Shown here piece after piece: positions 779 through 63,400 of a stretch of DNA of 64,000 nt. Position 1 is the first letter of the stretch. Each line of letters opens with the position of its first letter. The translations under genes were made by a program, and so were the position numbers. Source of the DNA: Heterotrichella gracilis (taxonomy: Eukaryota; Sar; Xanthophyceae; Tribonematales; Xanthonemataceae); contig JAULBX010001226.1 of the NCBI GenBank assembly GCA_032358255.1, positions 91,563 through 155,562 of the forward strand. Reading direction: 5' to 3'. The notes under the pieces were generated by a model. It searched no databases and was not told the origin of the DNA. It saw nothing but the letters and a program-made list of their open reading frames with translations.

Positions 779-3120
779 ATGGCTGGTGGAGGGGTGGCGG
801 AGCCCCTTCTGGGGGCGGAGGTGGAGGAGGGTTGCGAAGGGGGCGTCTGATCCAGGCCGCCGCGTGTAGCGGCGGTACCAGCGGCTGCGGAGCACGGGGA
901 AGATGAGGTGGAGGATGGGGCACCAGACCTCCATGGCATCCTCGCTTCGGTGTTCACGCTGTTGGTGTCGCTACCCGCGCTGGGTAAGGAGTAAAGAAAC
1001 GTCTTCCTGGGAAAGTTGTGGTGGTTTTGGTAGACTTGGACTGTGGTGGTTTTGTTTTAATGAAATTGCAGGTGTGCATTGTGCTGGGCACGTTCATGTG
1101 CCATAAGGTGCATGTTATAAGGTTGTTGTGGGGTGTTGATATAGAACGGGGGTTGGTGCAATAGGTGCATTGGTTCCAAGGCCCCTTGGCAGTGTTTAGC
1201 TGCCCTTCCTATTAAGTGTGTGCCCTTCCTCTATGTGCACTTCCCCCCTTGCTTGTGCCTCTCCCTTGTGTGTACGCCTCCCCGATGTGTGATGGCCCCC
1301 CTTCCAAGACCCCTTGGATATCAACTGACCGCCGCCACCTCCACCCACCCACCTTGTGTGCCCCTGCAGTTGGCTCCTGATGCTGGCCGCTCCTGCTGGC
1401 AGGTGAGACACAGGCAGGGTTTAGGGCACCTTTAGGGTTTACCAGAGTCATGAGGCAGCCAAGCTTGTTGGACCCTAAACCCTACCGCAGTGGTCGTTGT
1501 CTCAGGTTTCAGTGTTGCAAGGAACTTGACTCTCTTTAGCCCAAATGAACTTATTACAGAATGCACACCTTGTTTTGCAATTCGTGTTACCATCACCTCA
1601 TCGATAGAACCCCGACTGTTTACCACCATGCTTATTAAATGCTGCACGTGCACACCCTTGTAGGGTTTCGCTGGAAGTCCTCGTGCGACTGCTATCATGG
1701 TCGCGAGCGGCACCAGGCGTGAAATTTCCTGGCAAACCCTAGCAGGGCTTTGATGTGAGATTGTGTGTGCACCCTTGCAGGGTTCGCTGGAATCACTGCA
1801 ACGGCAGGGGCAAAAGCATTCGCACACGACATCAGCTGGGGGATTGACCTGGCAGCGCTGACCAATGTTGCCCAATACACGTGGTGGAAGGTGGCCGAGC
1901 GCAAGTGAGTCCCTGAGTGCATCCACTATTGTTGCTCTTGCATGCAATCTGGCAATCCCAGTTGATTACAGTAAAGAAAGTATCAAGGGGGAACTCAACG
2001 TATGTGACTTTTTCTTCTCCTTATCTGGTGCTGGCATGGATTGTGACCCTAACCCTAAACCCTAAACCGTAAACACCTTTTGTGCACATGGGGAGTCACC
2101 TCCAGCGTTACCTCCCCTTGTACCTGGTGCTGGCATCCATTGTGAGGCCAATCCTAAACCCTAAACCCTGAATCCTACACCCTAAACCCCTTGCTTGTGT
2201 GCGCAGGGGGAGTCACTTTCAGCGCTACCTCCCCTTGTGCCTGGTGCTGGCATCCATCCCCCTCATCATGGCAGACCCAACACGACATGTGTTGCAAGGT
2301 GAGACGCAGGCCCTGGGGTTTAGGGTTTTAGGGTTAAATGTTTGACGTGCTGCAAGGTCAGCAGGAGGCCCCAGGGTTTAGGGAGGGGGCTCTGCGCCTG
2401 GTGTTGTGTATATGACCGTTTAGAGTTCGGATTGTCTGCAGGTTTGTTATGTGTATAAGAATATACATGGTGTGCTTGCATAATACATGAGGCTTTGTGC
2501 ATGTATTTGTTGCTATTCCCGCCTTCAGGTGGTTGTCGTGCAAATGTGAAAACCAGCCACATCGCCACATGCAGCCTTCGTTGTCTTCTGCTCTCTTCTT
2601 TCAGACGCAGAATCTTCCCCCTACTGCTGCAGATTCCGACATCTGGCCTGCCCCCTCCTCCAGCATGTACATTGGGGGTGATTGTGATCCCCAGGGCCTG
2701 AAGGGCTTCCTGTGCCTCACCTTGGTGGGGTGGCTGTTCACCATTGTGTTCACCTACACAGGGTTTGGCCTGCTGCTGACAGGTGCGACACCCTAGCTGG
2801 AAAAACGATAATAGAAACCCCTTGCTAAACATCAATGCCCCAAACAGTCATGCTCTCTCTCAAGCCTGGGATTTGAACTACCACCTTGCATCTTGCAAAA
2901 TGATCACTGGCCAAAATTTTCCTTGGGCATGGAAATGAATCTCAAGTCCACCGAAATCTTACAATCATGCAAGCCGGATTCTGCCCTCAATCGGTGTATG
3001 ATTCTGAGCTCAATGTCGGTCGCAGGTGTGGTGATTGGTGCGGGTGTGCCTGGCAAGGTGCGCAAGGCCTGGAGGGACCTGCGTCGCGCTCGCCGCCGCA
3101 GCCCACCATCCGCTGTGTAG
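779..3120 (+). CDS. Small multi-pass membrane protein, function unknown
   Basis: Phase-compatible exons are 779-983, 1781-1904, 2207-2298, 2633-2782 and 3026-3120 (TAG stop), giving about 221 residues. Three hydrophobic regions are visible: one around the exon 1/2 join (ILASVFTLLVSLPAL), one in exon 3 (LPLCLVLASIPLIM) and a long one in exons 4-5 (LVGWLFTIVFTY through VVIGAGV). The tail is very basic (VRKAWRDLRRARRR). The start is ATG 779 in a good CCACCATGG context, but an in-frame TGA at 848-850 separates it from the conserved part, and no other in-frame ATG follows in exon 1. Either the true 5' exon lies elsewhere, or this allele is broken, or the base call is wrong. Two other exon-like pieces (about 1072-1123 and 1370-1402) look hydrophobic but do not fit in phase. 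The family is not recognised. Confidence 0.6.
1647..2372 (+). repeat. Exon ghosts in introns of the membrane-protein gene
   Basis: Three decayed copies of neighbouring exon edges are visible. 1647-1705 resembles the acceptor and start of the 1781 exon (CACCCTTG-AGGGTT-CGCTGGAA). 2081-2145 resembles the start of the 2207 exon (GGGAGTCAC, CTGGTGCTGGCATCCAT), with a shorter piece at 2021-2045. 2333-2372 resembles the end and donor region of that exon at 2283-2325. Telomere-like CCCTAAA tracts lie beside them at 2043-2066, 2150-2190 and 2310-2335. Confidence 0.75.
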
Positions 3121-4561: not shown

Positions 4562-7500
4562 CTATTGCCCCCCCGCCTTTGGAGTTTTCTTCTCCCCTTG
4601 CAGGGTCGGCTGCGTGGGCGGCGTGATCGGCCTCCCCTTGCCACCCTTCTCCGCCTTCTCCGCCTTCTCAACCCCCTGGAACACCTCGCTGTGCATCAAA
4701 ATGTTCTCCCATTTGTCCGGCACCTTCACCGAGCCATCTGTCTCCAGGTAGTGGGGCGCAGCCGGCAACCCTAGGGTTCTCCACGTCGACCCCGCACGCT
4801 CAGCTTCCAGTAGCGCCTACAGGCAAGCCAGCAGGACCCTTAGCAAACCGTACATTATGAAAATGTGACTCGTAGAATTTTACACAATGCCTACGAGCGC
4901 TCAGCTACAAGTAACTTCTGTAGAGAGTCCATGCAACGCCAAGGTGAGGGTGACATGGATTCCCCAATACAGGCAGATCAGCATGCCTTCACTATCCACA
5001 TGCCTTGCATAAGCCAGCCCAGCTTGTCCCCCTCCTTTGCGCGAGCTATGTGGCAACTATGCACTGATAATTGATAAGCTATGTTAGGAGTTGCATCACT
5101 ACTTCATCATTACAGTGAGGCGCACCCCAGCACATGCAATGACACCCGTCCAGACTGGAATTGCGGACATCCTCATTCTTGCTTTCAAATATAAGACCAA
5201 GTGCATTCTTCTACTCACCGCCTTGTCGCTGCCTGCCCCAGATGCTCCCTTGCTAGGGTCAGGGGCAGCGCTGAAATCGACTGAACGGGAGGGGTCCGTT
5301 GGGTACAGCCGCTGGCAGGTGGTCATCAGCCGCTTGATGGCCTGTACACACAGGGAAGAGCTTGGAGTTCACAATAAATAATGTCGTTAGAATTCCATGA
5401 GTTCCAGCTACTGGCAGTATTAAATTGGATATGCACACTGGGAGTTAAGTGCAGGTCCAACAACAACAACCGTCCAGACATGGTGATAGGTGGACATACT
5501 GATGGGCAGATGGATTAGAAAGGCAGGTAAGTGGGTCCTGTTCACTGTCCATGAAACCTCGTACCCTCCACCGTCCATCCACAAGACCCTCCCCCAGCCT
5601 CACCTGCAGGTACTTCCGTGTTGCCTCATCTGTCATGATGTGTGATGTGCCCTTCACATTCATCGAGTGACTGATCTTCTCACGCGCCGAGCGGTCGTGG
5701 ATGCCGATGGAGGTCACGCCGATGGGCCAGGGGGCGGTGCCTGCAGGTGGGTGGTACATGCAGCATTGACAAGAGTGCAAGGGGTGAAATGAGGGGATTT
5801 ATGCCAATGGAAGCAACTTCCATGGGCCAGGAGAAGGTGCCTCTGGTTGGGAGTGACCGGCATTGATAAGTAGACAAGGGGCATGATGCAACCTCATTTA
5901 ATTGGAATGGAATTTTAAATTTAAATAAAGAAACACTTTTATTGATAGTTTGTTAAAAGGACAACTGGTGTACTATTGCCCTCACCGATGCTCATCTTCA
6001 TGTACACATCCGATGCCTGCAGGTAGTTCCTGTCCCTGATGGCCCCCACCATCAGCCACAGACCAGCCTTCACCTCGTCGCTCAGCGCGCGCTGCTGCAG
6101 CATGCGGAATAGCGGCTGGAAGAACGTCATGGTCTGCTCAAACAGCAGCTTGGCTTGCTGACCTGCGCAAGAGAGCCAGTGAGTTATGCACAAATCCTGT
6201 TAACCTGGGAGGCGCGCTGCACATCTGCCAGGAAATTATGGTGGTCCTAAAAGCTAAACCCTTGCTAGCTTGCGCTGCTGCAGCATGCCGAAAGCCTGTC
6301 CCAAACCCCACCTATGATTATCACCTGGCCCCAAGGCCGCCTGGCCCCCAGCTGTCGTGCCTCCAGATGTTGGCGCCTGAGGACTCACACCACATGCAGA
6401 AGGTAACTACTAACCCCAATCCAAACGCAAGCCTAAGAGCTTGCAGGTTCTGATTATGGTTATGGTCATACCTGGCCCCGAGGCGGCTATCTCCGGCTGT
6501 CGCGCGTCCAGATCGTGCCGCCAGTCCTCGCACCATGTGCGCAGGTACATGAGGATGCGCTCCACAACTAACACACATTGTTCACCAGCACCCCTGGTCT
6601 GCAGGGAACACCACATCCCAACGGAGTTTCAAGGGGTTTCAATCGTTCCCACCTGGCCCCGAGGCGGCTATCTCCGGCTGTCGCGCGTCCAGGTCGTGCC
6701 GCCAGTCCTCGCACCAGGTGCGCAGGTACATGAGGATGCGCTCCTCCACAGGCAGGTCCTGCATGCCCTGGCGCAGCTTCACGGCATCCGCGGCGCGCTG
6801 GAAGGTGGCCATCAGGTCCTGCATGCATTAAGGGTTTGGTTTAGGGTTTTGGAACTAGGGTGCTGGCCCAGCTTCACGGCATCAGCGGCGCGCTGGAAGG
6901 TGGCCATCAGGTCCTGCATCCGGGCAGGGTTTGGTTTAGGGACGAAGTTAGGTGGTCACGAACCCCGCATGCAATGTACATTAGGGTTTCAGGGCAGCAC
7001 GGTGAGTTGCACCGGCTCATTATAGGAATATTTTGTATGCAACCCCACCCCACCCCACACCTGGTGCTTGTACCTAATTAAACTATGCCCCCATGTACAT
7101 AACTACATAAGACCCCACCTGGTGTGCTAGGTCCTCGGCAGCCTCTACGCGGTATAGATTAGGGTTTGCAAAAGGGTACAGGTATGCTGTTGGGTTAGGG
7201 TTTTGGGTTAAGGTTTCTGGTTTGTGTAGGGCTGTTGTCCCCACCACCACACACTTGGTGCGCTTGGTCCTCAGCAGCCTCCTCGCTTTTTGGCTGCTCC
7301 TTCACCACCGCGGGCGAGGGAGGCGCCTTGGCCCGCGCGCGCTGCTCCTTCTGGATGGCCAGCAGCGTGTTGTCCTGCTGGCCCCCACCCGCGCTGTCAT
7401 CAGCCAGCGTGAGGGCGGCGGACGCAGTGCGTAGCCTCATGACCCGGGCGGCGTCATCCTGCGTGGGGCGGGTGGGTAAGTGCTTTGGGTGTGTGGGTGT

Positions 7501-10195: not shown

Positions 10196-13100
10196 ATGAC
10201 ACGCGCACAGACACACTCGGAGTCGGTGCGGTCTGTGGCATCAAGCGTGGGGGCGCTGTGCGATGGCCTGCCTCGCTACGCCACCGAACCGCCCGTGGAG
10301 GCGGTGGTGTTTGCATGGGGGGTTGGGGACGACGGCCAGCTGGTGAGTGGTTGGGATGGTGATTTTGGGCAGGGTTTATGTTGGACTTTAGGGGTCACTG
10401 GCAGGTTTTTGCCTGGGGCGTGGGGCAAGGCTAGTTGGTTGTGGGTCTGGGCAGGGTGTAGGTGTTTGCTTGGTGTGTTTGCAGGGCCGTGCCCTTAAGG
10501 TTGGATACCTACGTGACGCCACCACCAGTTCCCATGTACACCCTCTTGCAGGGTTTGGATGTGGATGCCTACGTGACGCTACCGGGCATTCGCATTATAT
10601 CCCCCAACCCTAAACTGCAAACGATAAACCCTAAACCCTCCTGCAGGGTTTGGATATTGATGACTACGTGACCGCACCCAAGGTGGTGGAGGCCCTACTG
10701 GGCATCCGCATGCGTGGGAAGGAGTTTAGGAGCGAGCCCCTGGTAGGGTTTTGCAACGCTGGACCCTAAACCCTAACTACCAAATGCGCTAGAGGGTCAT
10801 GCAAGGGAAGGTTTTCAGGAGCGAAACCCTGGTAGGGTTTTCAAACGCCAAACGGTCATCCCAAGCCCCCATTGAGGGTTCCTGGGTGGTGACGCCGGTG
10901 TCCTGGTCCATGTACTTGAATACAATGAATTTGTTCTACTGATAGTTCATTCATCATCATCACCACAATTAGGGTTCTTGCATGGTGCAGCAGGACGCAT
11001 ATACACAAGGGCAATAAGACAATACCATGTCCTATCTTTTCCTTATTACCTTTGGTTTACCTTGCAGTGTTGACGACGCCTGTGCTGCGATGCATCCCCT
11101 TTTGTATCCCTTTCCCTTGCCACTCCCTGATAACACACCCTACTGTGTGGCCGCCCATCATCATGAACCCCAAATAATAAACCCTAAAATACCTGCTACC
11201 TAACACTATCATCCCGTCCCTGCTCCACCTCTTGCAGGTGGCAGGCAGCCGCAACACCCTGGCGATAGATGCAGATGGACAGGTGGGATGCCCTAAACCC
11301 TTAACCTCAAACCTTGAAACCCAAAGCCCATTTATGTCTGAGCACAACTGATCCAGCTCTTATTCCAGCCTGCTCGCTGTGAATTCCACCCTTCAGTCTT
11401 TGGTCTGCTGGGTGGGGTCTTGATGTTACTGATCTTGATATTACTGATCACGGCTGATTGCAGGATCGCATGCATGACTGATGTAGCTCCCATCCCCCAT
11501 TTCAGCCTGATCACTTGGAATTTCTTCCGTGCAGTTGTGGTCCTGGGGATGGAATGCGCGCGGGACTTTGGGACACGGTCACAGGTGGGGATATTGTTGT
11601 TGAAAATTTGAAAAGTAATTGTTGCTTTGCAGATGGGGTTACCCTGTATTTCATTCACAGTGAAGGAGGATTCTACCCCTCATGCTTCGACGGATCTGGG
11701 TCCCTTTCACTTGGATGAAACAAGTTCACCCATCCAGGAAATCCAAAACCCCAAAGCTGACCCTGAAAACCCTCGTCATGCAGGTCCACCGAGCGCAAAC
11801 CCCGCAGGGTGGCCTCCCTTAAGGGGGTGAGGATAGTGCAGTGCGCGCTGGGGGGGTGGCACTCGCTGGCAGTCAGCGACAGGGGGCAGGCATACGCCTG
11901 GGGGGGAAATGAGTATGGGCAGTGCGGGGTCAAATTTGACCAGCGCGACATCACATTGCCCACCCCCATCCTGCCGGGGCTAAAAGTGCTGCAGGTGGCC
12001 ACAGGGGGGATGCACTCGCTGGCGCTCATTGAAACTGGGGAGGTAAGGCCTTGCAGCACAAGTGCTCAGTCTGGGGGTGCAAAATAACATAGGAAAACGC
12101 GAAGTTGGGACTGGAAAGGCAAAGGAAATGAAAAGGAAATTCGTGACAGGATATATTGGTTTCGAGGGGTAGAAACCATTGGGCAAGCCATGGGGCAATT
12201 CCAGCACGACCATTGAGCTGCGCCTAGCAGTGCTTGCCACTGATAGTAGTATTCACCTTGCAAAAAAGTACTGCAGTACTTTGAATGGCCAGATTCTCCT
12301 CCCTTCAGGTGTGTCAATGGGGCCAGCATGACTATTGAGCAGCGGCCCCGCAATCATGGTATCAATACCATGATATGTAGTGCTGATAAATATAAGAAGA
12401 CGGATTTAAGTGAAATGCTTATGTTGTTTCCCGCCCTCCTCACAGGTATGGCAGTGGGGGGAGCCCTGGGGCGACTTCAGCATGACCATTGAGCAGCGGC
12501 CCCGCAAGGTGCAGGGGGCTAACGACATCGCAAAGATAACCTGCGGGGCGTTCCACAATCTGGCACTCAACTGGTGCGTGGCAAGGCAAAACCCTGCTTT
12601 AAACCTCAGCCCTAGGCTGGTGCTTGTCAGGTGGAATCGTGTGCACACCCTACTTTAAGGTTACATCGCCAAGATAACCTGCGGGGCGTCCCACAACCTG
12701 GCACTGGTGAGTGGCAGGACAACAGTGCTGCCCTAATTGCTAAACCATACACTGGCGTATGGTAGCCCAAACCCTGTGCACACTCTACTTCATGTTGCCA
12801 TCGCCAAGATAAGCTGCTTTGCAAACATGAACCATGCACCTCAATTGGAGAAAAACCCTAGCCCTAACATCTGAATCCTTACGGCGTTGAACTGAACTGG
12901 TGCTTGGCGGGGCATAGTTGTGTACACCTGGACAAGGGAACTAACAATCTGTTTAGGGTTTAGGGTTTAGGGTTAGTTGTGTACACCTGGACAAGGGAGC
13001 TAACAATCAAGGTTGTTGGTAGTTTAGGGCGGTGTTTGCACGCTAAGAAGCAAGAATCCAATTTTAATGGAAACTACGTCCCCCTGTTTCACAATCAAAT

Positions 13101-16100
13101 ATAACATGTATTTTATCTGTCAGGGAGGGCCAGGTGTTTGCCTCGGGCATCTACGACTTTGGCCAGCTAAGTAGCGGCACCACAAGAATGAGAGTTGTAT
13201 AAAAAAAATCCATTTTCTTTGCCTGCTAATTAGCATTTTATTCCCATTTCCAGGGAGGGCCAGGTGTTTGCCGGGGGCATCATCAACTTAATCCAGCTGG
13301 GCAGCGGCACCACAACAATAAAGAAATATGACGAAAAATGGCCTGCTAATCAACTATTAATTCCCATTCCCAGGGAGGGCCAGGTGTTTGCCTGGGGCAT
13401 CAACGACTTTGGCCAGCTGGGCAGCGGCACCACCTGCTACTCCACACAACCGAACCCCGTGGTAGGGTTTGAGGATGTGGCCATCGCTGACGTGTCGGCA
13501 GGGGGGTGGCACTCGATCGCCCTCACAGTGAATGGAGGTGCGGGCTGGTTTAGGGTACTGCATGGGGTTGGATATGGCATTTCTGTGGGATATGCATTGG
13601 AATGGCTTGGGGCTCACCCTGTGGTAGGGTTTGTGGATGTGGGCATCGCTGGTGTGTTGATTAGAAAACTCCACCACATTGGTGTGTTCCCAAGACAGCC
13701 CTAAATACCTCTGTTTGTGACTCACGTCAAAATTTTCATCTGTAATCCTCCCGAATTTTCTCTCACCAGAGGTGTATGTGTGTGTATGGGGGTGAGTATG
13801 GGCGCCTGGGTTTGGGCGACAAGGGGGGCGCCAGCAGGCTCAAACCCTACCAAAGACCTTTCAACTCTAATCCAAACCTACCTAGAATGGTACCAAAAAG
13901 GCTGCCGTACCCAACCAACCTAACCAAAAGCCCCCATATCTGCAGAGGTGTATGTGTGGGGGCGGGGCGAGTATGGGCGCCTCGGTCTGGGCGACAAGGG
14001 GGGCACAAGCAGGCTCAAACCCCAAATAACGTTGCCAAACCCTGCAAAACCCTATCAACCCATTTCAAAACCCGCTTTTCGCAGAGGTGTATGTGGTGGG
14101 GCGGGGGGAGGACGGACGCCTGGGCCTGGGCGACAAGGGGGGCGCCAGTAGGCTCAAACCCTTCCAAGCATGACCCTAAAATGGACAAAATGCTACCTTG
14201 ACACTCTACCAAAAGGGCTGTTGTACCCAACTACTCACTTTAAACCCCCACACTTCTGCAGAGGTGTATGTGTGGGGGAGGGGCGAATATGGGCGCCTGG
14301 GCCTAGGCGACAAGGGAGGCACGAGCAGGCTCAAACCAACACATGTGCATCTCCCCGAGGAGGGGTGTGTGGTGGCAGCATCGGCAGGGGGGACGCACTC
14401 CATGGTGGTGACTGAGGAGGGGAGGCTGTACGTGTGGGGCAGGGGGTCCTTTGGGCGGCTGGGGAATGGCGCCATCCAGGAGTGCTACTCGCCGGTGGAA
14501 ATCACGCTGCCAGGTGAGTCGATGTTGTTTGAAAGGGGGGAAAGTAGTAAATTAGTAATGCCATGGGTGTAGAGGTGGAAGCAACTGTGACGGGGTGTGG
14601 TTGTTTATTGGGGTTTCTTAGGGTTTGGGCGGCTGGGCAATGGCGGCATCCAGGAGTGCTACTCTCCCGTGGAAATCACGCTGCCAGGTAAGGGGATGCT
14701 GTGGTTTTCGAGCGTAAAGTAGGGTTTAGGGTTTAGGGTTTTCAAGCGTAAAGTAGGGTTTAGGGTTTTCAAACGTAAAGTAGAGTTTAGGGTTTTCAAG
14801 CGTAAAGTAGGGTTTAGGGTTTTTAAGCGGAAAGTAGGGTTTAGCGTTTAGGGTTTTCAAGCGGAAAGTAGGAATGGAGTGGCTGACTTGCCATGGAGGT
14901 GGAGTGGTTTGGAAGGGCCTGTGACGGGGTGTAGCTGTTTGGTAGGTTTTGGCAGGGTTCGGGAGGCTGCGGAATGGTCTTATTGTAATCCGACTGGGAA
15001 CATCACTTGTCTACTGGCTTCAGTGTATTTTTGACCCCTCTTCCCCTCTTTTTCCAGGTGGGCTGGAGCGGTGGCGGGTGGTGAGCATATCCTGCGGGGG
15101 GCGCCACTCCATGGTCCTGGCGGTACCCTTCAATGCAGAGGCCTCGCAGGTATGCTTAGGGTACTAACCTAAACCCTAAACCCCAATCCCTTATCCCTAA
15201 GCCACTCCATGGCGCTGGCGGTGCCCTTTAACGCAGGAGCCTCGCAGGTGCAGACCAAATCCTAGACATCAAAACCTGAAAACTTAACTTGTGCGGTGGG
15301 TGCTAGTCAATGGTGCTGACAGTGCCTTTCAACGCAGAGGCCTCACAGGTGCGCGTAGGGTATTCGTTTAACCCTAACCTCCAAGCCACTCAATGGTCCT
15401 GGCAGTGCCTGTCAGGGCAGACGCGCTCAGGTGTGGTTAAGGTCTTAAGTATAAAGTATTGAACCGTAATCCTGCGGATGGTGGTGTTGTCGGCGCCATT
15501 CAAACCCGCGGCGATGCAGGTGCATCCCAAACCCTCTACTTGAATCCCTGAACCCTGCACATAACCCTACACCGTTGAATGAAAGGGGAAAGTGAGTACG
15601 GTAATGAGAAAATATGCCATTTCTGGGCAGACTGGTTGTAAATGAATGAAGCAAGTCCGAATGTGTGCCAGTTGGAACCACACCAGGTAATAAGCAGATG
15701 ACGGCTGGCAATGCTTTTTTTTGTTTATGGTCAGTCTGAATCCTTGTCCCTGTAATGCGTAGGCGCCCACTCCCCGCCGCCTGTCGGGTCGCCAGCTGGC
15801 GGTGACCACAGGCAGCGATGCAGACATCGAGTTCTCAGAAGCTGAGTTGGACCAGGAGGGGGACTATGATATTGGGGAAGAAGAGGAAATGGAGATGCCA
15901 GCAGGTAGGAAAATATTTTATGCAAATGAAGGGCAAAGACTGGAATCATGCAAAGTATTTTAGTGGCAAATATTGGTAGTTATGGTGGCTGAGGTGGAAT
16001 GGGAGGGGGGTTATAGTATTTAGGAGGAGGACGTGCCAGCAGGGAAAGCGGGGGTGGTCAAGTTGCTGAACTATCAAAAATGGGCAAAATGTGATGAGGC

Positions 16101-20118: not shown

Positions 20119-23100
20119 TCATGCCCCCGCCTGCTTTGCGTCTCCTTTCGCCCCAGATGCTGACTGAGCCATTGCAAGCTCTGGGGTCCACTCATCAAAC
20201 GTCGGCTCCCGATCCAGTGCACCCTGGTCAACACTCCCGCTCGGGTAATGCTCACGTGATGCACCAACCGCAACAGCTCGGGGGGTGGGCGATGCTGAAT
20301 CCCCCTCCTTGGTCTTCCGCTCTATGTCCGCAGATTGGGAGCCAACGGCTGCATGGCCTGCGCCTTCGGCTACTGGAGGTGGCGGCCCGTCGTCCATGAT
20401 CTGCACTGCCATCTGGCGCATGTGAGCCGCGTACGTCGCGCCGTTCATCCCACCCCGCAGAAATTCCTTCAAGGTGGCCTCGCTGCTGTCCGCGCGCCCC
20501 AGAAGCGGGCGATCCTCCCCACCGCCACTGCTTTGATGGAACAGAGGGTTGTGGCCACGGCTGCGCAACGCATTGAATGCATCGCCAAAGGCGGCGTCCT
20601 GCCAAAAGTCGGGAAGCACATCCAGAGGCGGCGTAGGCATACACGCGCTGATGCACTCCTGCAGAGTGGTCGTGGCTGGCCCCGGTTGCGTCTCCTCCTG
20701 GCCTTGGCTGAGCTCCGACAGAGCGGCAAGCGGGGCATTCCTGGACAGAAACGCGTATGATTCCGCTGGCCGGGGGCTGAACGCAAACGAGACCTTGCGA
20801 CTAACGTCCGCTCCCGCAACATCCTGACTGGCGGCATGGGATGCATGTGCATCACTTGGCTGGGAGGCAGCGGTCAGCAGTATCGCTGCAGCGTTTGCAG
20901 CATTCCTTTGCAGACATGTTGCCAACTGCTGCTGCTCGTCAGGGGAGAGGCACGACGGGGTTGCCTTGGGCCCCGCGGTGGATGCAGCGGCTGTGCCAGG
21001 CGCCTGCTTGGCATTGGCCGCATGAGTCCACAGATCCAGGCTTGCTGCATCAACCCGGTGCCCACTGGCCAACGCCTTGGGAGCAACCCCTTCCCCGGTT
21101 GCCTCTGGAACAACCGGGGCGGCAGCGCGCTGGACCGCCATGGAGAGCGGTGCGCTCGACAGCTCCTTCCTCTGAGCGAAGCTCAAACCCCCACCACTGG
21201 ACAGGGCATCGCCACCGGTTGGCGCTGGGGTGTCTGCAGCGACCGTGCCGCACAGCTTTGCCGCTGCTGCAAGCAGGGCGCTGGGGTGGGAATCCGATGA
21301 TGGCGAGTGGCACGGGGAGGCCGCTGGACCGCTCTGACTCAGAAAATGGCCAGGTGGTAGCAGTTCGCCTAGCCGTATCCCGGCGGACGAGCCAGGGGCG
21401 CTGCTGGTGGGCGACCCCGGCGCACTGGGCGTGGGGGTCGACAGGAGGCTGGCTGTGGGCGAGGCAGGCTTGCTGGGGGCCGGTGAGAAGGGGGACACGC
21501 GCCTCTTGATTGGCTGCCGGGAGGCAGCAGGCATGTGCACACATGCGTCGCTGGCCACGCCAACCGCCTTGGCGGCGCAGGGCGGCCCCTGACTGAGCGC
21601 AAGCGCGTGCACGGCGGCGTCGCCGGTCGCCCCGCGCATGCTGCCATCGCCTGCTGCGCTCAAGGGCGCGACGCCCTGGGTGGGCATCGACAGCGGGCGC
21701 TGCACTTGCAGCTCCCTTCTGCTGCGGTGCGAGCGCACCACCGCCTGGTGGTGGCTGCGCGTGAAGGCCTCGGTGGAGCGGATGGAGGCAATGACTGCGG
21801 CCATGTCGGGGCGGAGCTTTGGGTCCGCCAGCAGGCAGCGGTCGATGAGGTCGGAGATCTCGGAGGGGCACTCATCAGGCGTTCTGTGCGCACAAACGAA
21901 ATAGAAAAAAAATTAAAAAAATAGAAAAAAAATGATGCATTAAATAAGTTATTATTGATTGATTGAATGATAATTCATTTAAGGATAATAATGATATAAG
22001 GTAGAGAAGGAAAGAGGGGAGCTACGCAGCCTGTCTTTAAACAAGCGCGCTGCCGTAGTATCCACTGAAAACACAACAAATAACTTCCTATGGCTAGTAC
22101 CATACAATGATGACCGTCTTTGGAGCTGGTGGGCAGTGGCCCATTCCCTTGGCTAAGGGCACACTCCCCACCTGGCCACCATTGGATGTGGACATTAACA
22201 ATCATGTTTTAGGGTGCACACAGAGGCAGCTTCACCCTAGCCTTGGGTTGACTCATCCCAGGCAAGGTGGTCCCCACGCACCTCCCTGGGTGCTCGACGG
22301 CACACAAGCATGTCAACAGATACTTATGCGGCATCCACCTCAAGACCACCCTTTCCCTTGCAAGGCAGGGCCCCTCAGCACCTCCCACAACCCTCACCCA
22401 CGCCAACCCCAGACTAGGAATCACCGCGCCTTACAAGGGTGGTGCACCTAAATCCTCCACCCTACAACGGTAGTGCACCCAAATCCCCAGGCAAGGCCCC
22501 CCCACTTCACCCCCCCCCCCCCCAAAAAAAAACCTAACCTAGGGTCCACCCACCTCAGCTCACGCAGCTTCCCCCGCACAGGCAGCTCCCCCGCGCAGAT
22601 CTCCCACAGGACCACGCCAAAGCTGTACACGTCGGCGGCTGTGGTCACCACACGCGCATCCATCATCTCGGGAGCCATCCAGGACCATGTGCCCGACAGC
22701 GCCTGCGCGCTCATGGTGAACTTCTCGTGCATGATGTGCGCAAGGCCCACGTCCGCGATCTGCACAGCGTGTGTGAAAGGGTGGTTGAAAAGAGCGTGGG
22801 GATAGGCCCAGGTAGTAGGGTTCAGAGCTCATGTGTTAGGGTTTAGGGTCACTTTGCGTGCGCCGTCCATGGACACGTGCCGAACAGCGCCTGGGCATTC
22901 ATGGTGGAGTTCTCTTGCATGATGTGTGCCAGGCCCACGTCCGCGATCTGCAAGCGTGTATGCATCTAAGGGGTTAGACGCAGCAGGGACACTGGGTTGT
23001 TGCTAGTGAGGGGCTTGGCCCAGGTTGTAGGGTTCAGAGCTCATGGGTTAGGGTTTAGGGTCACTTCACGCAACCCATGTGCCAAACAGCGCCTGGGCAT

Positions 23101-34000: not shown

Positions 34001-34139
34001 TAACTATAGCTGCGCAGTTACGTACATGCCGCAGCATGCCACCAAACCAATGTCAAACCCAAATGCTACTGGGCATACCATAGAGAAGCTGAGAGATTGA
34101 TAGTTACAGCTGGGTACTGTAGTAATATATCAAGATGGG

Positions 34140-39400: not shown

Positions 39401-41223
39401 ACAGCCCACCAAATCACCACCGAAAGAACCTCATTCGCTCCTCCTCCCCCTGCAGGGACATTAAACTGGACAACTTGCTCCTGGACTGCCCTCCTAACTG
39501 CGACCCTCAGCTCAAGGTGTGCGACTTTGGCCTCTCAAAGGATGTGTCTCGCAGCAGTGCACCCCATACCCTGGTTGGCACCCCGCTGTACATGGCTCCC
39601 GAGGTGCTGCTGAATGTGAAAGAGTACGATGGCCACAAGGCGGACGTGTGGTCCTGTGGGGTGGTGCTCTACTACATGCTGCACGGCAGGTGCGGGAAAT
39701 CCTCCACAAACCCTCCATCCACTGCAGGTACTAAGAGGGTAACAGAAAATGATGTAGGTTTGCTGCAGTCCGTGCAAACCGATACCGTTAGGTGGCGCAT
39801 CCTTGTCCCCCTATAATGTTGCAGGCGCCATGCCCCCCTCTTGAATCCTCCCCTTGCATGCACTTACCTTCCTGGATCACAGTTTGTAGTACACGGGCCA
39901 CCCCAACGCTGCCAACCTTGACTCCTAACAACCACAAACCAAATTTAAATCGAATACCACAATCACTCGGTGGCAAGCGCCCGTCAAGCACTGTCTGTGC
40001 TTTCAACGCCCCCCTCTCATGTTGACCATCTTGGGCCTCCCATGCAGGCACCCATTTGAGCACAGCGTGGGTGGCATCAACAAATCAACCCTGGACCCTT
40101 CATACGTTGCCCAACCCTTAAACCACACCCCAGCCTCCCTTTTGCAACCAAGCATTCAGCCACTGCCACTGTCACAGTGTCCGATGTACTCCTCCCCTGA
40201 GCTCTCCCCTCCTGAGCCACCTGCTCTTCCCCCTTCCAGGCACCCATTTGAGCACAGCTGGCGCAACACAGGCGACCCCAATGCGCCCAACCTGGCCCTC
40301 CAGTCCTACTTCAAGGCCCTCATGAACCAGGAATACGTGCTTTCGGAGGCCCTCAGCCCAGACTGCAGGTAACGTGTGGAGGTGTATGGGTTTGTAATGG
40401 GTTTGGTCCAGGTGCAGTTCAGAGCCTTATGCATCAAGATGTGTGGGTGGAGGGCCCACTTGGTAGGGCACTATGGTGCAGGCATTAAGTGTAATCATGA
40501 ATCAAGAGCAATCACGTTCAAAGACTCGCAGCTTAGACTCGGTAATGGTGGGGCAGCTGGAAATGTGATGAGGAGAGAAAGCACAGTTGTGTGAGCACAA
40601 CCTCAAATGCTCCAAGCTCAAAAAGGCAATGATAAAGGGCGCCGTACTTCATAGACTAGTTGATAATTGGATGGAATGGCCACCACAGTTCTTGTAACCC
40701 ATAGGCACCTGGCGTTGTGCAGTCCCTTGAGATTGAAGGGAACTCGCGGAGCTCTTGCTCTCCTTCACACAGGAGCGCCTTCACAAACTACCAAAGGGGG
40801 CTAAAAGTAGTTATTTAGTTACATGCATTCCAGCAATACTGCCAGATCAGGAGTTAGTCTAAAAAGGAATTGAAAACTACTTAGAAAATACTTTGCAGTT
40901 CGCCCATATTGCCACCCCTTTTCCCCCTTCCTTCCTCATCTGCCTTACACACCCTTAACCCCCCTCCCTGCTGCAGGTCCATCCTCACCTCCATGCTCCA
41001 CTCAGACCCCGCTTCCCGCCCCTCCATCAACACCCTCATGTCCCACCCCTGGTACAACCAGGGCGCGGAGGAAAGTCTAGGGCCAACCATCCGCGAAATC
41101 AACCGGGGATACGCGCAGCGCCCGTCACCCCCTGGGATGCAGAGTGAGGACGACATCAAGAACATTTGCCGCGCAACTTTCCCTGCTCTCAGAGCGCGCA
41201 ACGACCAGCTCGACTTGGGTTGA
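36491..41223 (+). CDS. SnRK2-like Ser/Thr protein kinase with repeat-rich N-terminus
   Basis: Exons 36491-37094, 37344-37942, 38665-38948, 39456-39689, 40240-40368 and 40977-41223 join in phase, about 698 residues. Residues about 25-190 are a degenerate 9-residue repeat (ADPTQGLTA). A Pro/Thr/His-rich linker follows. The kinase domain has [10 protein letters not shown] (P-loop), VAIKFVEV (lysine), [13 protein letters not shown] (catalytic loop with Asn in place of the usual His), [44 protein letters not shown] and HPWYNQG. The sequence around [14 protein letters not shown] and the short C-terminus fit the SnRK2 branch, which acts in stress and nutrient signalling in the green lineage. It is a paralogue of the gene at 43299-46677. 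The start (ATG 36491) is uncertain; an acceptor-like site at 36549 would allow an upstream exon. Confidence 0.88.
36560..37075 (+). repeat. Coding tandem repeat (27-30 bp unit)
   Basis: About fifteen units of the type TTGACAGCGGCAGACCCTAC plus CCAAGGG lie in exon 1 of the kinase gene and encode variants of LTAADPTQG. Most units keep the reading frame, with unit length varying by multiples of three. The paralogous kinase lacks this block. Confidence 0.9.
38105..38550 (+). repeat. Ghosts of kinase exon 2 end and exon 3 start
   Basis: 38110-38170 copies the end and donor of exon 2 (GCGCAGTGC-AGGCGACGGGGCAC, GGTACG-AAA), real copy 37915-37955. 38495-38545 copies the start of exon 3 (CAGGTGGTGATCAAA-TTGTGG, CCACAC-ACGTG), real copy 38660-38705. 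Each lies on its own exon's side of the intron. Confidence 0.8.
39165..40110 (+). repeat. Ghosts of kinase exon 3 end and exon 5 start
   Basis: 39180-39230 resembles the end of exon 3 (GCTGCTGG, GTGGA-ACATG, AGAAGGGG in the real exon; GCTGCTGG, GTGGAGAACATG, ACAAGGGG here). 40044-40085 copies the start of exon 5 with acceptor (GCAGGCACCCATTTGAGCAC then AGCGTGG), real copy 40236-40265. Confidence 0.8.
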
Positions 41224-43298: not shown

Positions 43299-46200
43299 CT
43301 AAAACCTGTACTTCCCTTCTGCAGCCTCGAAGGAGGCTTGGCACAGCTCCCGAATTTGCTGGCTGGTCTGCAAGCCCGGTGGCGGGGGGATGTACACCAG
43401 CCCCCTATTGATGGTGTGGAGGGTGCGGCCCAGGGAAGGGAGGCAGCCCTCATTGAACCAGGGGTGGGACATCACTTCCAGCGTGGAGGGGCGGGAGAAG
43501 GGGCTTGGCACGAGCATGGCGGCAAGGAGCCGCCTGTGGGGGACGGGGGTGGGGGGCGTCAAGGGGAGAGGGGGCGGCTGGACTTTGCTGAAACCCAAGC
43601 AGATACATGACATGCATTTGTTGAAATATAATGTACCTCAATTCGTTTGTATTTACATACGAATACAAGTACAGCAACTCACTCATATTTGGGTAATAAT
43701 TGTGGTGCTTGAGCGCATACAAATGTAGTCATTTTATGCACCCCATGATATCTGTAATGACAGACACCAAACGGGGCTAAGCTCAGGTGCTATGCCCTTG
43801 TTACCCAGGTAGCTGTCAACACGCCATGCCCCACTGTTGCTGCCTGAACTGTCTGCGATTTTCTAAATTGGCTTGTGGCCCACGGTGCAGTTGTGTTAAG
43901 TACATTTCACACGAATTCAGCAATATAGCCAGATTAGCAGTCAATCTTGCACATGCGGGGCCATGCAGCTTGTTCCTGGCACTTTTTAAATTACTTATTG
44001 AACCCACGCAACATAAGGTCCGGTGCAGCCATGTGTAATAGCATTACTTGTCTTTCTTCCCTTCTTCAGTAACAGGTGGACTTTTCATGATAACCAACAA
44101 GAGTTATTATGCACTGCTGCAGTGTGGTGTGAGGCTGCTTGACAGCAACGGGTAGTTCTCGTAGTGCATAAGAAGGGTATTTTCAAATCCTGGTTTCAAA
44201 TCCTTATACTTGGATGCAAGGTGTAATAAAGGTTATTCAATTGGAGGGGAATTGTCAATATTTCCCTCCCAAAAAGCGGCAATACAACAACAGGGGTAGA
44301 AGGTTTTGTAATGTATTTTAAACCAGTACCTGCAGTCTTCCGAGAGGCTGTCTGCCAGGACGTAATTGTCATGGTGCTTGAGTAGCGCTGCCAGATACGC
44401 CTGGAGTTTGTAGTTGCGTGTGGTGCCAGCGTCACCAGAGCGAGGGCCATCAAAGGAGCAGCAGCTGCTCTCAAAGGGGTGCCTGCAGGTGTGGAAGGGG
44501 GGGTATATGGTCCAATGCTGCAAGAAGTGCAACATCCACAACGGCCCTCGCAGCAGGGGGAGAGGGGGGGGGAGGACAGCAATAGGGTTTATGCACAACA
44601 ATATGGTTTATGTACAAAGTTTAGTTCCTATACAGCGGACCGCCCATACACTCACCACACAGGGGCTGAACCCTACACCCTACCCCATGGTTCTATGGTC
44701 TGCTCACACCTTCCATGTGCTCACACCTTCCATGCAGCATGTGGAAGGGCACCACCCCGCAGGACCACACATCCGCCCTGTGCCTATCATAACCATGTAC
44801 TACATACTACAGGGTTGTGCCCACATGGCTGTCTCCCAGCACTGGCCAAGGCCAAGCGGCTTCTGCCACGAACTGTCGGAAGGGTTTCTGGGGGGTGGCC
44901 TCGCACCTCCCATGCAGCATGTAGTAGAGCACCACCCCGCACGACCACACGTCCGCCTTGTGCCCATCATACTCGTGCGCATTCAGCAGCACCTCTGGCG
45001 CAATATACAGCGGGGTGCCAACCAGGGTATGCGGCCCGCTGCTGTTGCAAACATCCTTTGAGAGGCCAAAGTCGCACACCTTGAGCTGTGGTTCGCAGTT
45101 AGGAGGGCAGTCCAGGAGCAGGTTGCAGGGCTTGATGTCCCTGCAGGAGCAGGGTTTAGGGTTCCTGAGGCCAGGGTTTGCAGCCCAAAAGGCAGTGCAG
45201 CAGCAGGTTGCAGGGACTGGATGTCCCTTGTGGGGAGGTTTATCCCAGGGTATGCGGGGTGTGGGAGGTTGTGTGGCAAGGGTTTCCATCGCCTCCCTCA
45301 CCTGCTTGTCATCCCCTGCACCAACCCTCCAAAAGTAGCCTCCCGGGACCTCCGCACCCGTTCCCTTTACCCTCAACCCCCCGACCTGCCGTTCCTCCCT
45401 TTGGTGCCCCGATTGCAGGCCCTAATGCAGAATGCCTAAACCCTGATGCAGAATCCCAAGCCCTCACGCATACCTCCCCCCTCCTTTGCCACCCGCCTGT
45501 TGCTGATCCGCTGCTTCAGGATGTAACCACTGCCCACACCCACCTGTCCCAAACCCTAGTGAAGAGTTTCCCCCTCCCTTCCCTCCCCCTCCCACCCACC
45601 TGTTGCTGATCCCTTTCACCACCATAAAGTCCACTCCTGCCACCAGCTGTTGGAACAGATGCCTTGCCTTGTCCTCACACATCTTCCCGCACCCATCCAG
45701 CATGTCAGTCAGGCTGCCCATGTTCATGTAGTCCATCACTATCCCCACACCGTCGGGGGTCAGCACCAGCTCCCGGAAGGGCACCACGTGGGGGTGGCCG
45801 GTGAGGGCGCGCAGGTTGAGCACCTCACGCACCACCAGCTGGAGCATGCGGGCGTCGTGGACCCGCACGTACTTGATGGCCACCTGTGTTGCGAGGGTAA
45901 AAGTCATAGTTTGTATGGGTTTGTATGGGTTTCTCTGGGCCCTGTTGGTCTTTGAGCGGATAGGCGGCAGCATTTGGTGCAGGTGGCGGGAGGCTTGAGA
46001 GGGCTTGTGGGTGGTAGGTTGAGCACCTCACGGACCACCAGGTGCAGCATGCGGGGGGCGAGGACGCGCACGCACTTGGCAGCCTGCGGGTTCAGGGTGT
46101 AGGGTTTCAAAGTAGGGTTTTTTCCCGTGCGCTCACTGAGCAACCGCGGCGGCTTACCTGTTGCCCCGTGCGGCTGCATGTGGCCAAGTGTACAGTCCCA

Positions 46201-60480: not shown

Positions 60481-63400
60481 ATGCCTCAATGCGGGAGTGA
60501 GGTGCTGGGAGCCGGGCTGTTGGCCGGGGTGTTCCTGACAGTGCTTGGGACTCTGGTAGTGCTGGACTTGGGTGAACAAAGCTCGAGGCGTGAGGGTTTT
60601 GTCTTCGAGAGCCTTACCACGCCCCCCGCCCCCCCCGTGAACCAAGGTAAGAGTCTGCCAACTGTACAAACCCAGTCGGTTGTGTCTGCAAACCACACGT
60701 CCACCCCTGCCTATTACTCGACAAATCGCCAAGCGTTCTGCTCAAACTGTGCACTACCCGTGCATTGAGGACCCGGGGTCCAATTGAGGCCTCTCGGTGG
60801 GCACCCATGGCCCCACATTGTGCATGCAAAATGGGGCCCAAGGGGTGCAGTGCAGCATAGGCCTTTTTCTAGTGGGTCACGTTGCACGCTGCTGGTGCCG
60901 GTTGGGTCATATGTAGGTATCAATACCAAGGAGTATTGAAGTCTTCGTTAGAGGTGGCCTGGTGCACTTTGTCGTTCCCCGACACCCAATTCTGCGATGC
61001 AGTACAATCAGTGTGCAGTGCACAGCAGCAAGTACAGCAGCGTTATTCCCACCTATGCAAACCTTGCAAGGGGTCGTGGGTCACTTCCCAGGGGGTGTCA
61101 CTGCCTACTCATATGTTATTCCCATCTAAGCATACCTTGCAAAGTATAGTGGTTTCTTATATTGTGGGTCATTTCCAGGGGTGTCTCCACACACTCATCT
61201 GTTATAACCATGCACCTGGCTGAGCTGCCTCCTTGGTGACCCCTAACTAGGGTTGGCAACAGTGGCTGCAGCACCATGTCAAACCCTAGGGCACCTTTGC
61301 ACCAAGTCAACCCTAGGGGCCAGTATCTGCAAGCACACGTTTTATTACACCTTGTTTCATGTGCACGCCTGCTGTGCTGACCCACAGGGCCAGGGGCTCT
61401 GGTGGCTGGCGCACTACACTCTCCTTGTGTGCTGCAACCCTCTTGAAACACGTTTCCAGTACTTTTTCTTTTGCTGTGCTGGAACACTATGGATAGGCAC
61501 AGCAAGCGCGCATTTCACATGATGTCTATAGGACAGCCGTTTTGGGTCGGCCTGCAGGGGTGGCGGCTTGGGGGGGTACAGGCAGGCCGGACAACTTTTA
61601 AAAGTCGTGTTTTTTTTTCAGGGTGGATTTAGGAACAGGGTGTTGTTTGGCTGGTTTAGGATTCAGGGGTTGTTGGCGCCTGTGGTGGCAGCCTGCAGGG
61701 AGGCAGTTGGGGGCGCAGCAGGGGTTTGAGGGTCTAGGGTTTCACTGGTTGGGCTAGGGTTTAGGCGGTTGCTGACACCTGTGGTGCGACCTCGCAGATG
61801 CGGCACCTGGCGGGCAACAGGCGGGCACAGCGCTTGAGAAGACTGTCCTCACCGCCCTGCTGGGCTGCCTCACAGCGGTGCTAGCAGGGCTGCTGCGGGT
61901 GCTGGTGGGGAAGAAGGTGTTCCACAAGCACCCACTGCGTCAGCTGCAGCCGAGGTGGGTGTCATGGGTTGTGAGTCACTTGTGACAAGGCGCAGGGGTT
62001 CAGCCAACGGGGTTTAGGGTTGGTGGTTAGGGTGAAGGGTTGGCACCGCCCTGCTGGGCTGCCTCACAGCAGTACTTGCAGGGCTGTTGCGGGCGCTGGT
62101 GGAAAAGGAGGTTTTTTAAAAGCAAACACTGTGGCGGCTGGAACCAAGGATGGGATTTCTTGAGAGGTGTAGGGGTTCAGCGTTTCTTGAGATTTGTGGT
62201 CTATGGTTGGCATATATGACCCAAGCTGTTTTAAAAGGCATTTCTAGGCCACAGGCCACCCTGTCACGCATGTTGGGTGTCTATTGGGTGTCCTTTGCAT
62301 GTTCATCTCTCAGGAATTAAGCTCAATCCGCTTTGTGGCAAGTTGGAGACGGTAAATGGTGTACCAGCAAGGGATGCTGACAAGTCATCATGGGTCACAA
62401 GGACCCTAAACCCTACTTTTGTGTTGTAGCAGGAAGGGCCGCAGGGTACCGCTGGGCGAGGGCCAGCCCCACCAAACTAGGTCCACTCCCAATGCCGCGG
62501 GGCCTAAGGAAGGGAGCACGGCTGCTGGATTAAGGTACAGTTGCAGTCTCGTGCGAGTGCCAGGTGGGATGCATCCACCGCTGCTGGCCACACGCCATGC
62601 GCTGCGGTTGTCCACAAGCCGCTACCATGTGCCGTCACCATGGTTCGTCAAGCGGTTGTCTCAAACTTATCAAGAAAATGTGATGACAAAGTAGGATGTT
62701 TATCTGAAACTCTGACGGACAATTTGGGGTTACTGTTACTCTGTTTTGGCGCTGTTTATACCATATCACTCCTATATTGCAGTCAATAGATGGTATAAAC
62801 AGCGCCAAAACAGAACCGCCTGGCGCCACATGTGCAAGATTAGATGCCAATCTGTTGTCCACAAGCCGCTGCCGTGTGGCGTCGCCGTGAAAGCAAGCGG
62901 GTTCTCTAACCTTGTCCAAATGTGATGACAAAATAGCAAGCTTATCTTGAGATTCCGGCAGGCATTTTGAGTTCACTGTTACTCTTATCACTCCTATCTC
63001 GAGATCAATAGATGGTGGAAAATAGCGCCTAGCGCCGCATGTGCAAAAGTATGCTAATCTGCAGGAATGCATGTGATTAACTTGCAAATACCACTGGCAC
63101 GAAAAGCAGGCAACATGCATCTTTTCTCTTGGCATGTGTTGCTTGTGCTGCTCCGCCTGGGTGTTTGCTGTGGTTATTCCTACTGCAGCTGGCTTTCATG
63201 GATCAACCTGTTATTTTGCTGTGCATTTTTCTTATCCCTGGCTTTTGTTGTGGCCCCAGGCGCAATGAGTCTTCGCCTGACTGCACCCAACAAGAAGTCC
63301 ATATGGCAGGCTCCAAAGGTCTCCACAAGCGCAGCGCGGGCGGACAAGGTATGCTGTGCCGGGTTCATGGTCCGAGGACTGGGGTCTAGGGTTTAGGCAA

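What the first reader, a model, noticed from the sequence alone, without database searches (positions are those of the whole stretch)
1647..62165. Introns across the whole window are built from decayed copies of their own exon edges
In all seven confident multi-exon genes, on both strands, introns carry one to four partial copies of the neighbouring exon. The copies include the splice site and often some flanking intron. Donor-side copies lie downstream of a donor and acceptor-side copies upstream of an acceptor, so order and orientation are kept. Copies usually grow more diverged with distance from the exon. This is what repeated short tandem duplication across an exon-intron junction would produce, with selection keeping one copy and the rest decaying into intron. 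Such a dense, gene-wide pattern is not something I know as a described feature of a green-algal genome, and it would be a clear mechanism of intron growth. The mechanism is inference; the copies are seen.
Basis: partly seen in the sequence, partly recalled or inferred. Interest (0 to 1): 0.88.

Follow-up and report, generated by a model that had tools for sequence, protein, structure and literature searches.

The report
Telomere-patched exon copies enlarge introns
In this probable green alga many introns hold decaying copies of the neighbouring exon's edge, and the DNA between exon and copy is often patched with the cell's own chromosome-end repeat, which suggests that introns grow as scars of repaired DNA breaks at exon edges.

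Summary
The copies are real and far above chance. They are almost always same-strand, lie close to their exon, and occur in 20 of 27 other 10-kb loci sampled. They are less universal than claimed: about one intron in five in the window and one in eight overall has a detectable copy; the zeaxanthin-epoxidase-like gene has only weak ones. "Older with distance" is not supported.

The mechanism looks different from plain tandem duplication. 59 of 61 young pairs have a spacer: A-B-A-C. A is mostly 20-105 nt of exon plus, in young pairs, usually only 2-27 nt of intron across the splice site. B is rich in the species' telomere repeat (TTTAGGG/CCCTAAA): 32 of 83 spacers, against 6 and 6 flanks; 18 of 42 against 4.2 expected at matched distance from the exon. 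Telomeric tracts also cluster 5-35 nt inside donors genome-wide, in both orientations (164 matches against 47 at 100-130 nt).

Best reading: staggered DNA breaks at exon edges were filled in, duplicating A, and joined with telomeric or other filler; the hidden copy then decays. Flank duplication with telomeric insertion is known as a minority event in mammals. Its density, exon-edge focus and role in intron growth look new. Empty-site and transcript tests were not possible.

The parts
6651..6744 (-). Exon edge (donor side) of a PRP18 gene: the source copy A
   Evidence: Gene model; Pfam Prp18 domain covered 2-143 of 143 with the extra copies left out by hand (not run with them in)
6470..6563 (-). 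98% copy of that exon edge, ends 2 nt past the donor (an in-frame cassette exon cannot be excluded here)
   Evidence: both differences at third codon positions
6564..6650 (.). Spacer B (87 bp), not duplicated, only one match in the genome (itself), no telomeric motif
6313..6405 (-). Older copy, 72% like the copy at 6461-6547
   Evidence: E 0.007
6768..6941 (-). Acceptor-side pair 6768-6846 / 6863-6941 with a 16-bp spacer; includes 28 nt of intron; the copies end in telomere-like sequence
10537..10672 (+). Acceptor-side pair of the RCC1-like gene: copy 10537-10577, spacer 10578-10631 with CCCTAAA, exon edge 10632-10672
10709..10848 (+). Donor-side pair; spacer 10760-10797 holds CCCTAAACCCTAA
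12915..13008 (+). Intron-intron pair (97%, 35 bp) whose 24-bp spacer 12950-12973 is almost wholly TTTAGGG repeat
13121..13433 (+). Three-copy acceptor-side array including intron end, RCC1-like gene
13767..14337 (+). Four-copy acceptor-side array (copies near 13767, 13943, 14082, 14259), RCC1-like gene
14450..14702 (+). Donor-side pair 14450-14528 / 14624-14702, 90%
15103..15443 (+). Donor edge and three downstream copies; first spacer 15152-15200 holds CCTAAACCCTAAACCCC
22674..23133 (-). Acceptor-side exon edge and copies, protein kinase gene
23522..23627 (-). Donor-side pair (98%, 41 bp); 24-bp spacer 23563-23586 is degenerate telomeric repeat
23669..23907 (-). Acceptor-side pair, 90%, match starts 5 nt before the exon
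24628..24804 (-). Acceptor-side pair, 91%; copy has lost the AG acceptor and one base of frame; spacer holds a telomeric motif
24815..25150 (-). Pair with 39-53 nt of intron included, 90%
27633..27850 (-). Array, period 83, about 2.6 units; unit contains TTTAGGGTTTAGG
28590..28813 (-). Acceptor-side pair, 93%; spacer 28649-28754 has only one match in the genome (itself)
37898..38157 (+). Donor-side pair, 80%, kinase gene
40039..40258 (+). Acceptor-side pair 40039-40066 / 40231-40258, kinase gene
44720..44971 (-). Donor-side pair of the second kinase gene, 88% (donor placed by eye; the gene model overruns it)
45106..45228 (-). Acceptor-side pair; spacer 45143-45190 holds TTTAGGG
45813..46078 (-). 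Acceptor-side pair, 87%
61850..62154 (+). Donor-side pair (111 bp, 81%); spacer 61960-62043 holds TTTAGGG

Best explanation
The introns grew by faulty repair of staggered double-strand breaks at exon edges. Step 1 (inferred): the two strands are nicked some tens of nt apart, one nick inside the exon and one usually 2-27 nt inside the intron. Step 2 (inferred): both overhangs are filled in, so the stretch A is present on each side of the break. Step 3 (filler shown, enzyme inferred): telomerase adds TTTAGGG repeats to a 3' end in a good share of cases, other sequence is added in the rest, and the ends are joined, giving A-B-A. Step 4 (shown as a pattern): one A stays exon; the other, with B, lies inside the intron and decays nearly neutrally. 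Step 5 (arrays shown, order inferred): some A-B units are later amplified into short tandem arrays. A plausible enzyme set, by analogy only, is telomerase plus the telomere fill-in complex CST-Pol alpha, which makes small duplications at breaks in mammalian cells.
For: Spacers in 59 of 61 pairs of at least 85% identity; isolated pairs at about 96-98% whose spacers are not repeated beyond the copies. Telomeric 8-mers in 32 of 83 spacers against 6 and 6 of 83 equal-length flanks; 19 control heptamers give 0-4 spacers. In 44 donor-only or acceptor-only pairs: spacer 19, outer intron flank 1. Matched for distance from the exon: 18 of 42 against 4.2 expected, z 7.3; with copies free of the motif 12 of 35 against 3.7, z 4.6. 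The species' telomere is TTTAGGG: several contigs begin with CCCTAAA arrays. Genome-wide matches of CAGGTGAG followed 5-35 nt later by a telomeric 12-mer: 79 G-rich and 85 C-rich; at 100-130 nt 26 and 21; backwards controls 0 (a few matches share one donor). Pairs at >=88% identity: 37 with exon, 3 intron-only, although introns are 58% of the sequence. Among 28 pairs of >=85% with one splice boundary, the exon part is longer than the intron part in 25. Near-neutral decay of the copy in 62 exon-intron pairs: divergence 0.082, 0.074, 0.187 at codon positions 1, 2, 3 and 0.155 in intron; 27 frameshifting and 0 in-frame indels in coding columns. Literature passages: horse telomeric insertion at a staggered break with flank duplication (PMC7215372); CST-Pol alpha small duplications (PMC8355091).
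Against: 51 of 83 spacers have no telomeric 8-mer. G-rich telomeric tracts are not enriched 5-35 nt before acceptors (109 against 106; that acceptor string overlaps the reverse of donor sequence). Repeat orientation does not sort by which break end it should mark. Some pairs are full tandem arrays. Of 44 pairs of >=85% with a boundary, the 16 with several boundaries were left out of the exon/intron comparison; some include longer intron parts (24815-25150: 39-53 nt; L014: up to 78; L027: 35 and 43), and 2 of the 28 counted have 74 and 124 nt. Position-3 to position-1,2 divergence is 2.4 (95% 1.96-2.95), above the roughly 1.6 that I would expect (own estimate) for a purely neutral copy; the 37 exon-exon pairs show 0.132, 0.094, 0.151. 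Exon interiors 60-120 nt from the edge also match the intron above chance (13 of 282 twice, 4.6 expected). No empty-site allele or relative was available. Why breaks should focus on exon edges is unexplained.
Confidence: 0.6

Rival explanations
1. Plain tandem duplication across the junction (replication slippage or unequal exchange); spacers are parts of the unit that diverged or were replaced later, and telomeric motifs merely sit in introns.
For: Nearly strict direct orientation; real full-unit arrays (L014, L017, window 13121-13433); older pairs often include long intron parts (below 85% identity the exon part is longer in only 20 of 40); two young pairs have no spacer.
Against: Spacers of isolated pairs at about 96-98% identity share nothing with the flanks; telomeric repeats sit between copies rather than outside, also after matching for distance; intron-only pairs are rare.
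Confidence: 0.2
2. Telomere-like tracts are functional intron elements (C-rich ones as branch site or pyrimidine tract, G-rich ones as splicing enhancers) and act as microhomology hot spots that trigger local duplication.
For: At -20 to -40 from acceptors 92% are C-rich; C-rich tracts before acceptors 131 near against 77 far; the motif also peaks near donors in introns without copies.
Against: Near donors both orientations are about equally common (79 and 85), unlike a strand-specific RNA signal; the excess in spacers holds after matching for position.
Confidence: 0.15
3. The copies are real alternative or mutually exclusive exons.
For: Some copies keep splice sites and frame (6472-6567 is 96 nt, 98%); third-position excess 2.4; my gene finder calls both copies exon in 37 of 126 pairs.
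Against: 27 frameshifting and 0 in-frame indels in 62 exon-intron pairs; position 1 and 2 divergence is about half the intron divergence, as for one neutral copy; the PRP18 domain is complete without the extra copies.
Confidence: 0.04
4. Assembly error or mixing of haplotypes.
For: L014 has a 100-N gap inside its array; the assembly holds a bacterial contig.
Against: Copies show graded divergence, recur on many contigs, and lie almost only in direct orientation.
Confidence: 0.01

Closest known systems
Short interstitial telomeric sequences inserted at double-strand breaks in rodents, primates and horse (PMC2246262, PMC7215372; passages read)
   Same: Telomeric repeats of the species inserted at breaks; some events duplicate the flank, and a horse example is ascribed to a staggered break; random filler also occurs.
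   Different: There: flank duplication in 6 of 130 rodent, 4 of 25 primate and 3 of 66 horse loci (2 more horse loci complex with duplication), and the human intron share is compatible with random placement. Here: short degenerate tracts, many flanked by exon-edge duplications of tens of nt, focused just inside donors, dense. Comparison with insertion-less sites was done there and is missing here.
Intron growth by internal staggered breaks in new Daphnia introns (PMC4202315; passages read)
   Same: Direct repeats from staggered breaks, insertions, introns lengthen passively.
   Different: Daphnia exon-copy repeats are 4-12 bp and belong to new introns; the string 'telomer' does not occur in the text searched. 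Here repeats are far longer, sit at edges of introns that extend well beyond them, and often carry telomeric filler.
CST-guided Pol alpha fill-in making small tandem duplications (PMC8355091; passages read) and patch-mediated duplication in rice (Vaughn and Bennetzen 2014; seen only as a reference there)
   Same: Staggered ends filled in, giving direct duplications; the fill-in machine is the telomere one.
   Different: In the passages seen those are adjacent duplications without telomeric filler and with no link to exon edges.
Tandem genomic duplication model of intron gain (AGGT model; PMC3443670, passages read)
   Same: Duplicated splice-site sequence.
   Different: There a new intron is born between the duplicates. 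Here existing introns grow; no copy abuts the far splice site (closest 46 nt, 53 copies).
Direct repeats near intron borders (Rogers and Bendich 2025, PMC11782384; abstract and outline read)
   Same: Direct repeats near splice sites ascribed to break repair.
   Different: 4-30 bp repeats at or near the two intron borders, read as insertion scars of the intron itself; the abstract does not speak of exon-edge copies inside introns or of telomeric filler.

Membership tests
Telomeric insertion at a double-strand break (short ITS) | Inserted repeat equals the species' own telomere repeat | tested here: met
   CCCTAAA arrays at the starts of contigs C70, C140, C526, C609, C717, C770, C824; spacer motif is the same
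Telomeric insertion at a double-strand break (short ITS) | Repeat lies at the break, between modified flanks | tested here: met
   32 of 83 spacers against 6 and 6 flanks; 18 of 42 against 4.2 matched; but 51 of 83 spacers lack it
Telomeric insertion at a double-strand break (short ITS) | Orthologous empty site without the insertion | not testable with these tools
   No relative is held
Telomeric insertion at a double-strand break (short ITS) | Genomic placement compatible with random breaks | tested here: not met
   Concentrated in introns and near donors; so this is not simply the mammalian kind
Staggered-break intron growth (Daphnia) | Direct repeats flanking a non-homologous insertion | tested here: met
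Staggered-break intron growth (Daphnia) | Short repeats of 4-12 bp | tested here: not met
   Exon parts mostly 20-105 nt, 9-68 in the young set; repeats under about 28 nt were below my detection limit, so short ones may also exist
Simple tandem duplication | Homology as long as the period, no foreign spacer | tested here: not met
   59 of 61 young pairs have a spacer; met in 2 young pairs and in arrays
Introner or other mobile element | Inserted sequences form a repeat family | tested here: not met
   Two spacers match only themselves in the genome; 54 spacers match other sampled loci only through telomeric motif apart from one weak hit, plus 12 hits within 1.5 kb in their own locus
Tandem-duplication intron gain (AGGT) | Copy abuts the far splice site of the new intron | tested here: not met
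   Closest 46 nt among 53 copies
Mutually exclusive exons | Reading frame kept in both copies | tested here: not met
   27 frameshift and 0 in-frame indels over 62 exon-intron pairs; pairs with both copies called exon were not in that test

The most novel reading that the evidence does not exclude
Exons, with a margin of about 25 nt, are preferred sites of staggered breaks in this alga (for instance where spliced mRNA re-pairs with the gene and forms R-loops that end at exon borders). The breaks are treated like chromosome ends, by telomerase and telomere fill-in, and sealed. Events that fall across a splice site survive because the copy and telomeric patch are hidden in the intron. This would be a continuing, genome-wide engine of intron growth that links telomere maintenance to gene structure.
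Probability: 0.3. Interest if true: 0.9.

Novelty: new variant of a known kind. Interest (0 to 1): 0.74.

Why it matters
How introns lengthen is usually inferred from old, saturated sequence. Here one genome shows a graded series from 98% copies to faint ones, with the source (the exon) preserved by selection beside it, so rate, position and filler of the events can be measured. The telomeric filler points to a specific, testable enzyme route, and the exon-edge focus raises the question of what breaks DNA there.

Tried and rejected
Rejected: chance (shuffles and reversed control). Simple tandem units as the usual form (spacers). Spacers copied from elsewhere in the genome (two searched; 54 compared with the sampled loci). 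Fresh intron birth. Copies taken from spliced mRNA (they carry intron bases past the splice site). Templated insertion with random orientation (2 inverted against 126 direct pairs). A gradient of telomeric motif with distance from exons as the whole cause of the spacer signal (matched control).

Led nowhere: orientation of the telomeric tract as a marker of the break end. Age against distance. Organism name by paper search. G-rich tracts before acceptors. A plasmid-collection search gave no match. No transcript data, relative or second strain was available. The library holds only open-licence papers, so this is weak evidence of absence.

Caveats: gene models come from my own small gene finder, trained on the same sequence without RNA evidence; it calls some copies exons, merges genes and misplaces some splice sites. 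N runs were read as A for gene finding and in the pair counts, which matters inside the L014 gap; sequences with N were skipped. Thresholds differ between calls (E<=0.001; E<=0.01).


Full report
WHAT THE WINDOW IS. The window is bases 91563-155562 of contig C15 in a 68.5-Mb, 903-contig assembly with no relatives in the collection. I wrote and trained a small splice-aware gene finder. It finds a putative membrane-protein gene (856-3120; my reading, not searched), a PRP18 splicing-factor gene (4562-8865, minus), an RCC1-like gene (9690-17493; my reading of the repeats), a protein kinase gene (from 20119, minus), two further kinase genes (35783-41223 plus; about 43299-46700 minus) and a gene with FAD-binding and FHA domains (52432-57852) that I read as zeaxanthin epoxidase. 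Pfam supports PRP18 (4e-46), two of the three kinase genes (8e-49 and 4e-52; the third was not searched) and the FAD and FHA domains. That the organism is a green alga is likely (zeaxanthin epoxidase, TTTAGGG telomeres; recalled associations) but was not tested.

THE COPIES ARE REAL. In the window, 61 direct repeat pairs start less than 500 bp apart (two arrays included), and no inverted pair less than 5 kb apart; controls give almost nothing. In 20 further 10-kb loci there are 41 direct pairs under 1 kb and 2 inverted, none in shuffles; 7 of the 20 had no direct pair under 1 kb, one of them a bacterial contig. With 8 more loci added and the bacterial one removed, 20 of 27 loci hold at least one pair at E<=0.01. 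Among introns, 61 of 508 overall and 20 of 93 in the window hold a BLAST-detectable copy, and such introns are longer (median 415 against 262 nt).

THE HIDDEN COPY DECAYS. In 62 exon-intron pairs with one splice boundary, divergence is 0.082, 0.074 and 0.187 at codon positions 1, 2 and 3, and 0.155 in the intron part; all 27 indels in coding columns shift the frame. One conserved copy plus one neutral copy predicts positions 1 and 2 at about half the intron value, as seen. The position-3 excess (2.4, 95% 1.96-2.95) is larger than the roughly 1.6 I would expect, so a minority of copies may be or have been coding. The 37 pairs in which my gene finder calls both copies exon show 0.132, 0.094 and 0.151.

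ANATOMY: A-B-A-C. One search shows the alignments. The copy holds the exon edge and the splice signal and then usually stops. Of 61 pairs of at least 85% identity, 59 have a spacer; 28 have one splice boundary, 16 several and 17 none. Among the 28, the exon part is longer in 25; the intron part is 2-27 nt in all 13 donor cases and 2-20 nt in 13 of 15 acceptor cases, the other two being 74 and 124 nt. The 16 with several boundaries are not in that count; some reach further into intron (24815-25150 39-53 nt, L014 up to 78 nt). Among pairs at about 96-98% identity and 35 bp or more, five are isolated (6470, 23522, 12915, L006, L029) and their spacers of 24-121 bp are not repeated beyond the copies; three more belong to the L014 array, whose spacer is itself repeated. 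This excludes a contiguous tandem unit for the isolated events. Two spacers match only themselves in the whole genome; 54 spacers match other sampled loci only through telomeric motif, apart from one weak hit, and have 12 hits within their own locus. In L014 4476-5255 the form is A(BA)3C: the last copy is followed by different sequence, as if an A-B-A start had been amplified.

TELOMERIC FILLER. Eight-mers of the TTTAGGG repeat occur 1189 times in 334 kb, against 36-140 for 19 permuted heptamers, and cover 7.96% of spacers, 5.8% of intron-side copies, 1.23% of other intron, 0.43% of intergenic sequence and 0.20% of exons. Of 83 neighbouring pairs, 32 spacers hold the motif, against 6 and 6 equal-length flanks; control units give 0-4 spacers. 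Because the motif is generally denser near exons, I matched for distance: 18 of 42 spacers against 4.2 expected from the 398 of 507 introns without copies (z 7.3); with copies free of the motif, 12 of 35 against 3.7 (z 4.6). Two spacers of 24 bp are essentially telomeric repeat only (12950-12973; 23563-23586). TTTAGGG is the telomere of this species: arrays stand at the very start of at least seven contigs in telomere orientation. The majority of spacers (51 of 83) have no such 8-mer.

GENOME-WIDE CHECK WITHOUT GENE MODELS. The donor string CAGGTGAG is followed within 5-35 nt by a telomeric 12-mer in 79 matches (G-rich) and 85 (C-rich), against 26 and 21 at 100-130 nt; reversed controls give 0 (a few matches share one donor). 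Several of these sites come in same-strand series 70-224 nt apart (for example C487, C197, C656, C211, C225 and, before acceptors, C195, C446, C263), as arrays of copied edges would. On the acceptor side C-rich tracts are denser near than far (131 against 77) and G-rich tracts are not (109 against 106). A selection filter could explain this, since an acceptor-side patch must still offer a branch site and pyrimidines; this is inference.

WHY EXON EDGES. At 88% identity or more, 37 pairs include exon and 3 are intron-only, although introns make up 58% of the sequence and intron-only duplications should be harmless. Damage or repair therefore seems focused on exons with a small margin, and only events that cross a splice site can hide. 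R-loops of spliced RNA that end at exon borders would do this; that is speculation.

MECHANISM. Best reading: a staggered break, fill-in of both ends (A duplicated), telomerase or other filler (B), end joining, then decay. The pattern is shown; the break, the enzymes and the timing are inferred. In horse, a telomeric insertion at a staggered break with flank duplication is described, and flank duplication is a minority class in mammals (6 of 130 rodent, 4 of 25 primate, 3 of 66 horse loci; PMC2246262 and PMC7215372, passages). In mammalian cells small duplications at breaks depend on CST-Pol alpha, the telomere fill-in machine (PMC8355091, passages). In Daphnia, staggered breaks are held to lengthen new introns, with exon-copy repeats of 4-12 bp (PMC4202315, passages).

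VERDICT. A real, unusual and measurable mode of intron growth. It is a new variant of a known kind (break repair with flank duplication and telomeric filler); what looks new is its density, its exon-edge focus and its apparent role in building introns.

Noticed in passing
G000 contig C1 (locus L002): The 894-kb contig has 33% GC in the 10 kb sampled and bacterial-type two-component kinases and regulators, probably Bacteroidota (my reading of the ORFs, not searched); the assembly contains a bacterial associate or contaminant.
   Followed up: partly
window 34168-34365: A 34-bp minisatellite of about 6 units in a long intron or intergenic stretch; dropped from the pair counts.
   Followed up: no
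window 36585-37058: 27-bp in-frame repeats giving a [13 protein letters not shown] protein repeat ahead of a kinase domain; dropped from the pair counts.
   Followed up: no
window 35783-41223 and 43299-46700: Two similar kinase genes on opposite strands; probably the source of the 10 inverted self-matches more than 5 kb apart. Coordinates of those matches were not printed.
   Followed up: no
window 14703-14872: A 27-bp minisatellite in an intron whose unit contains TAGGGTTTAGGGTTT: perhaps telomeric filler that later expanded.
   Followed up: partly
introns, -20 to -40 from acceptors: Telomeric motif there is 92% C-rich; CCCTAAACCC may be used as branch site and pyrimidine tract.
   Followed up: partly
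window 6472-6567: The 98% PRP18 exon copy is 96 nt long, in frame and has both splice sites in my gene model: a possible newborn cassette exon.
   Followed up: no
L017 around 1976-2483; L014 5663-6007: Other donor-side multi-copy arrays with regular periods.
   Followed up: no
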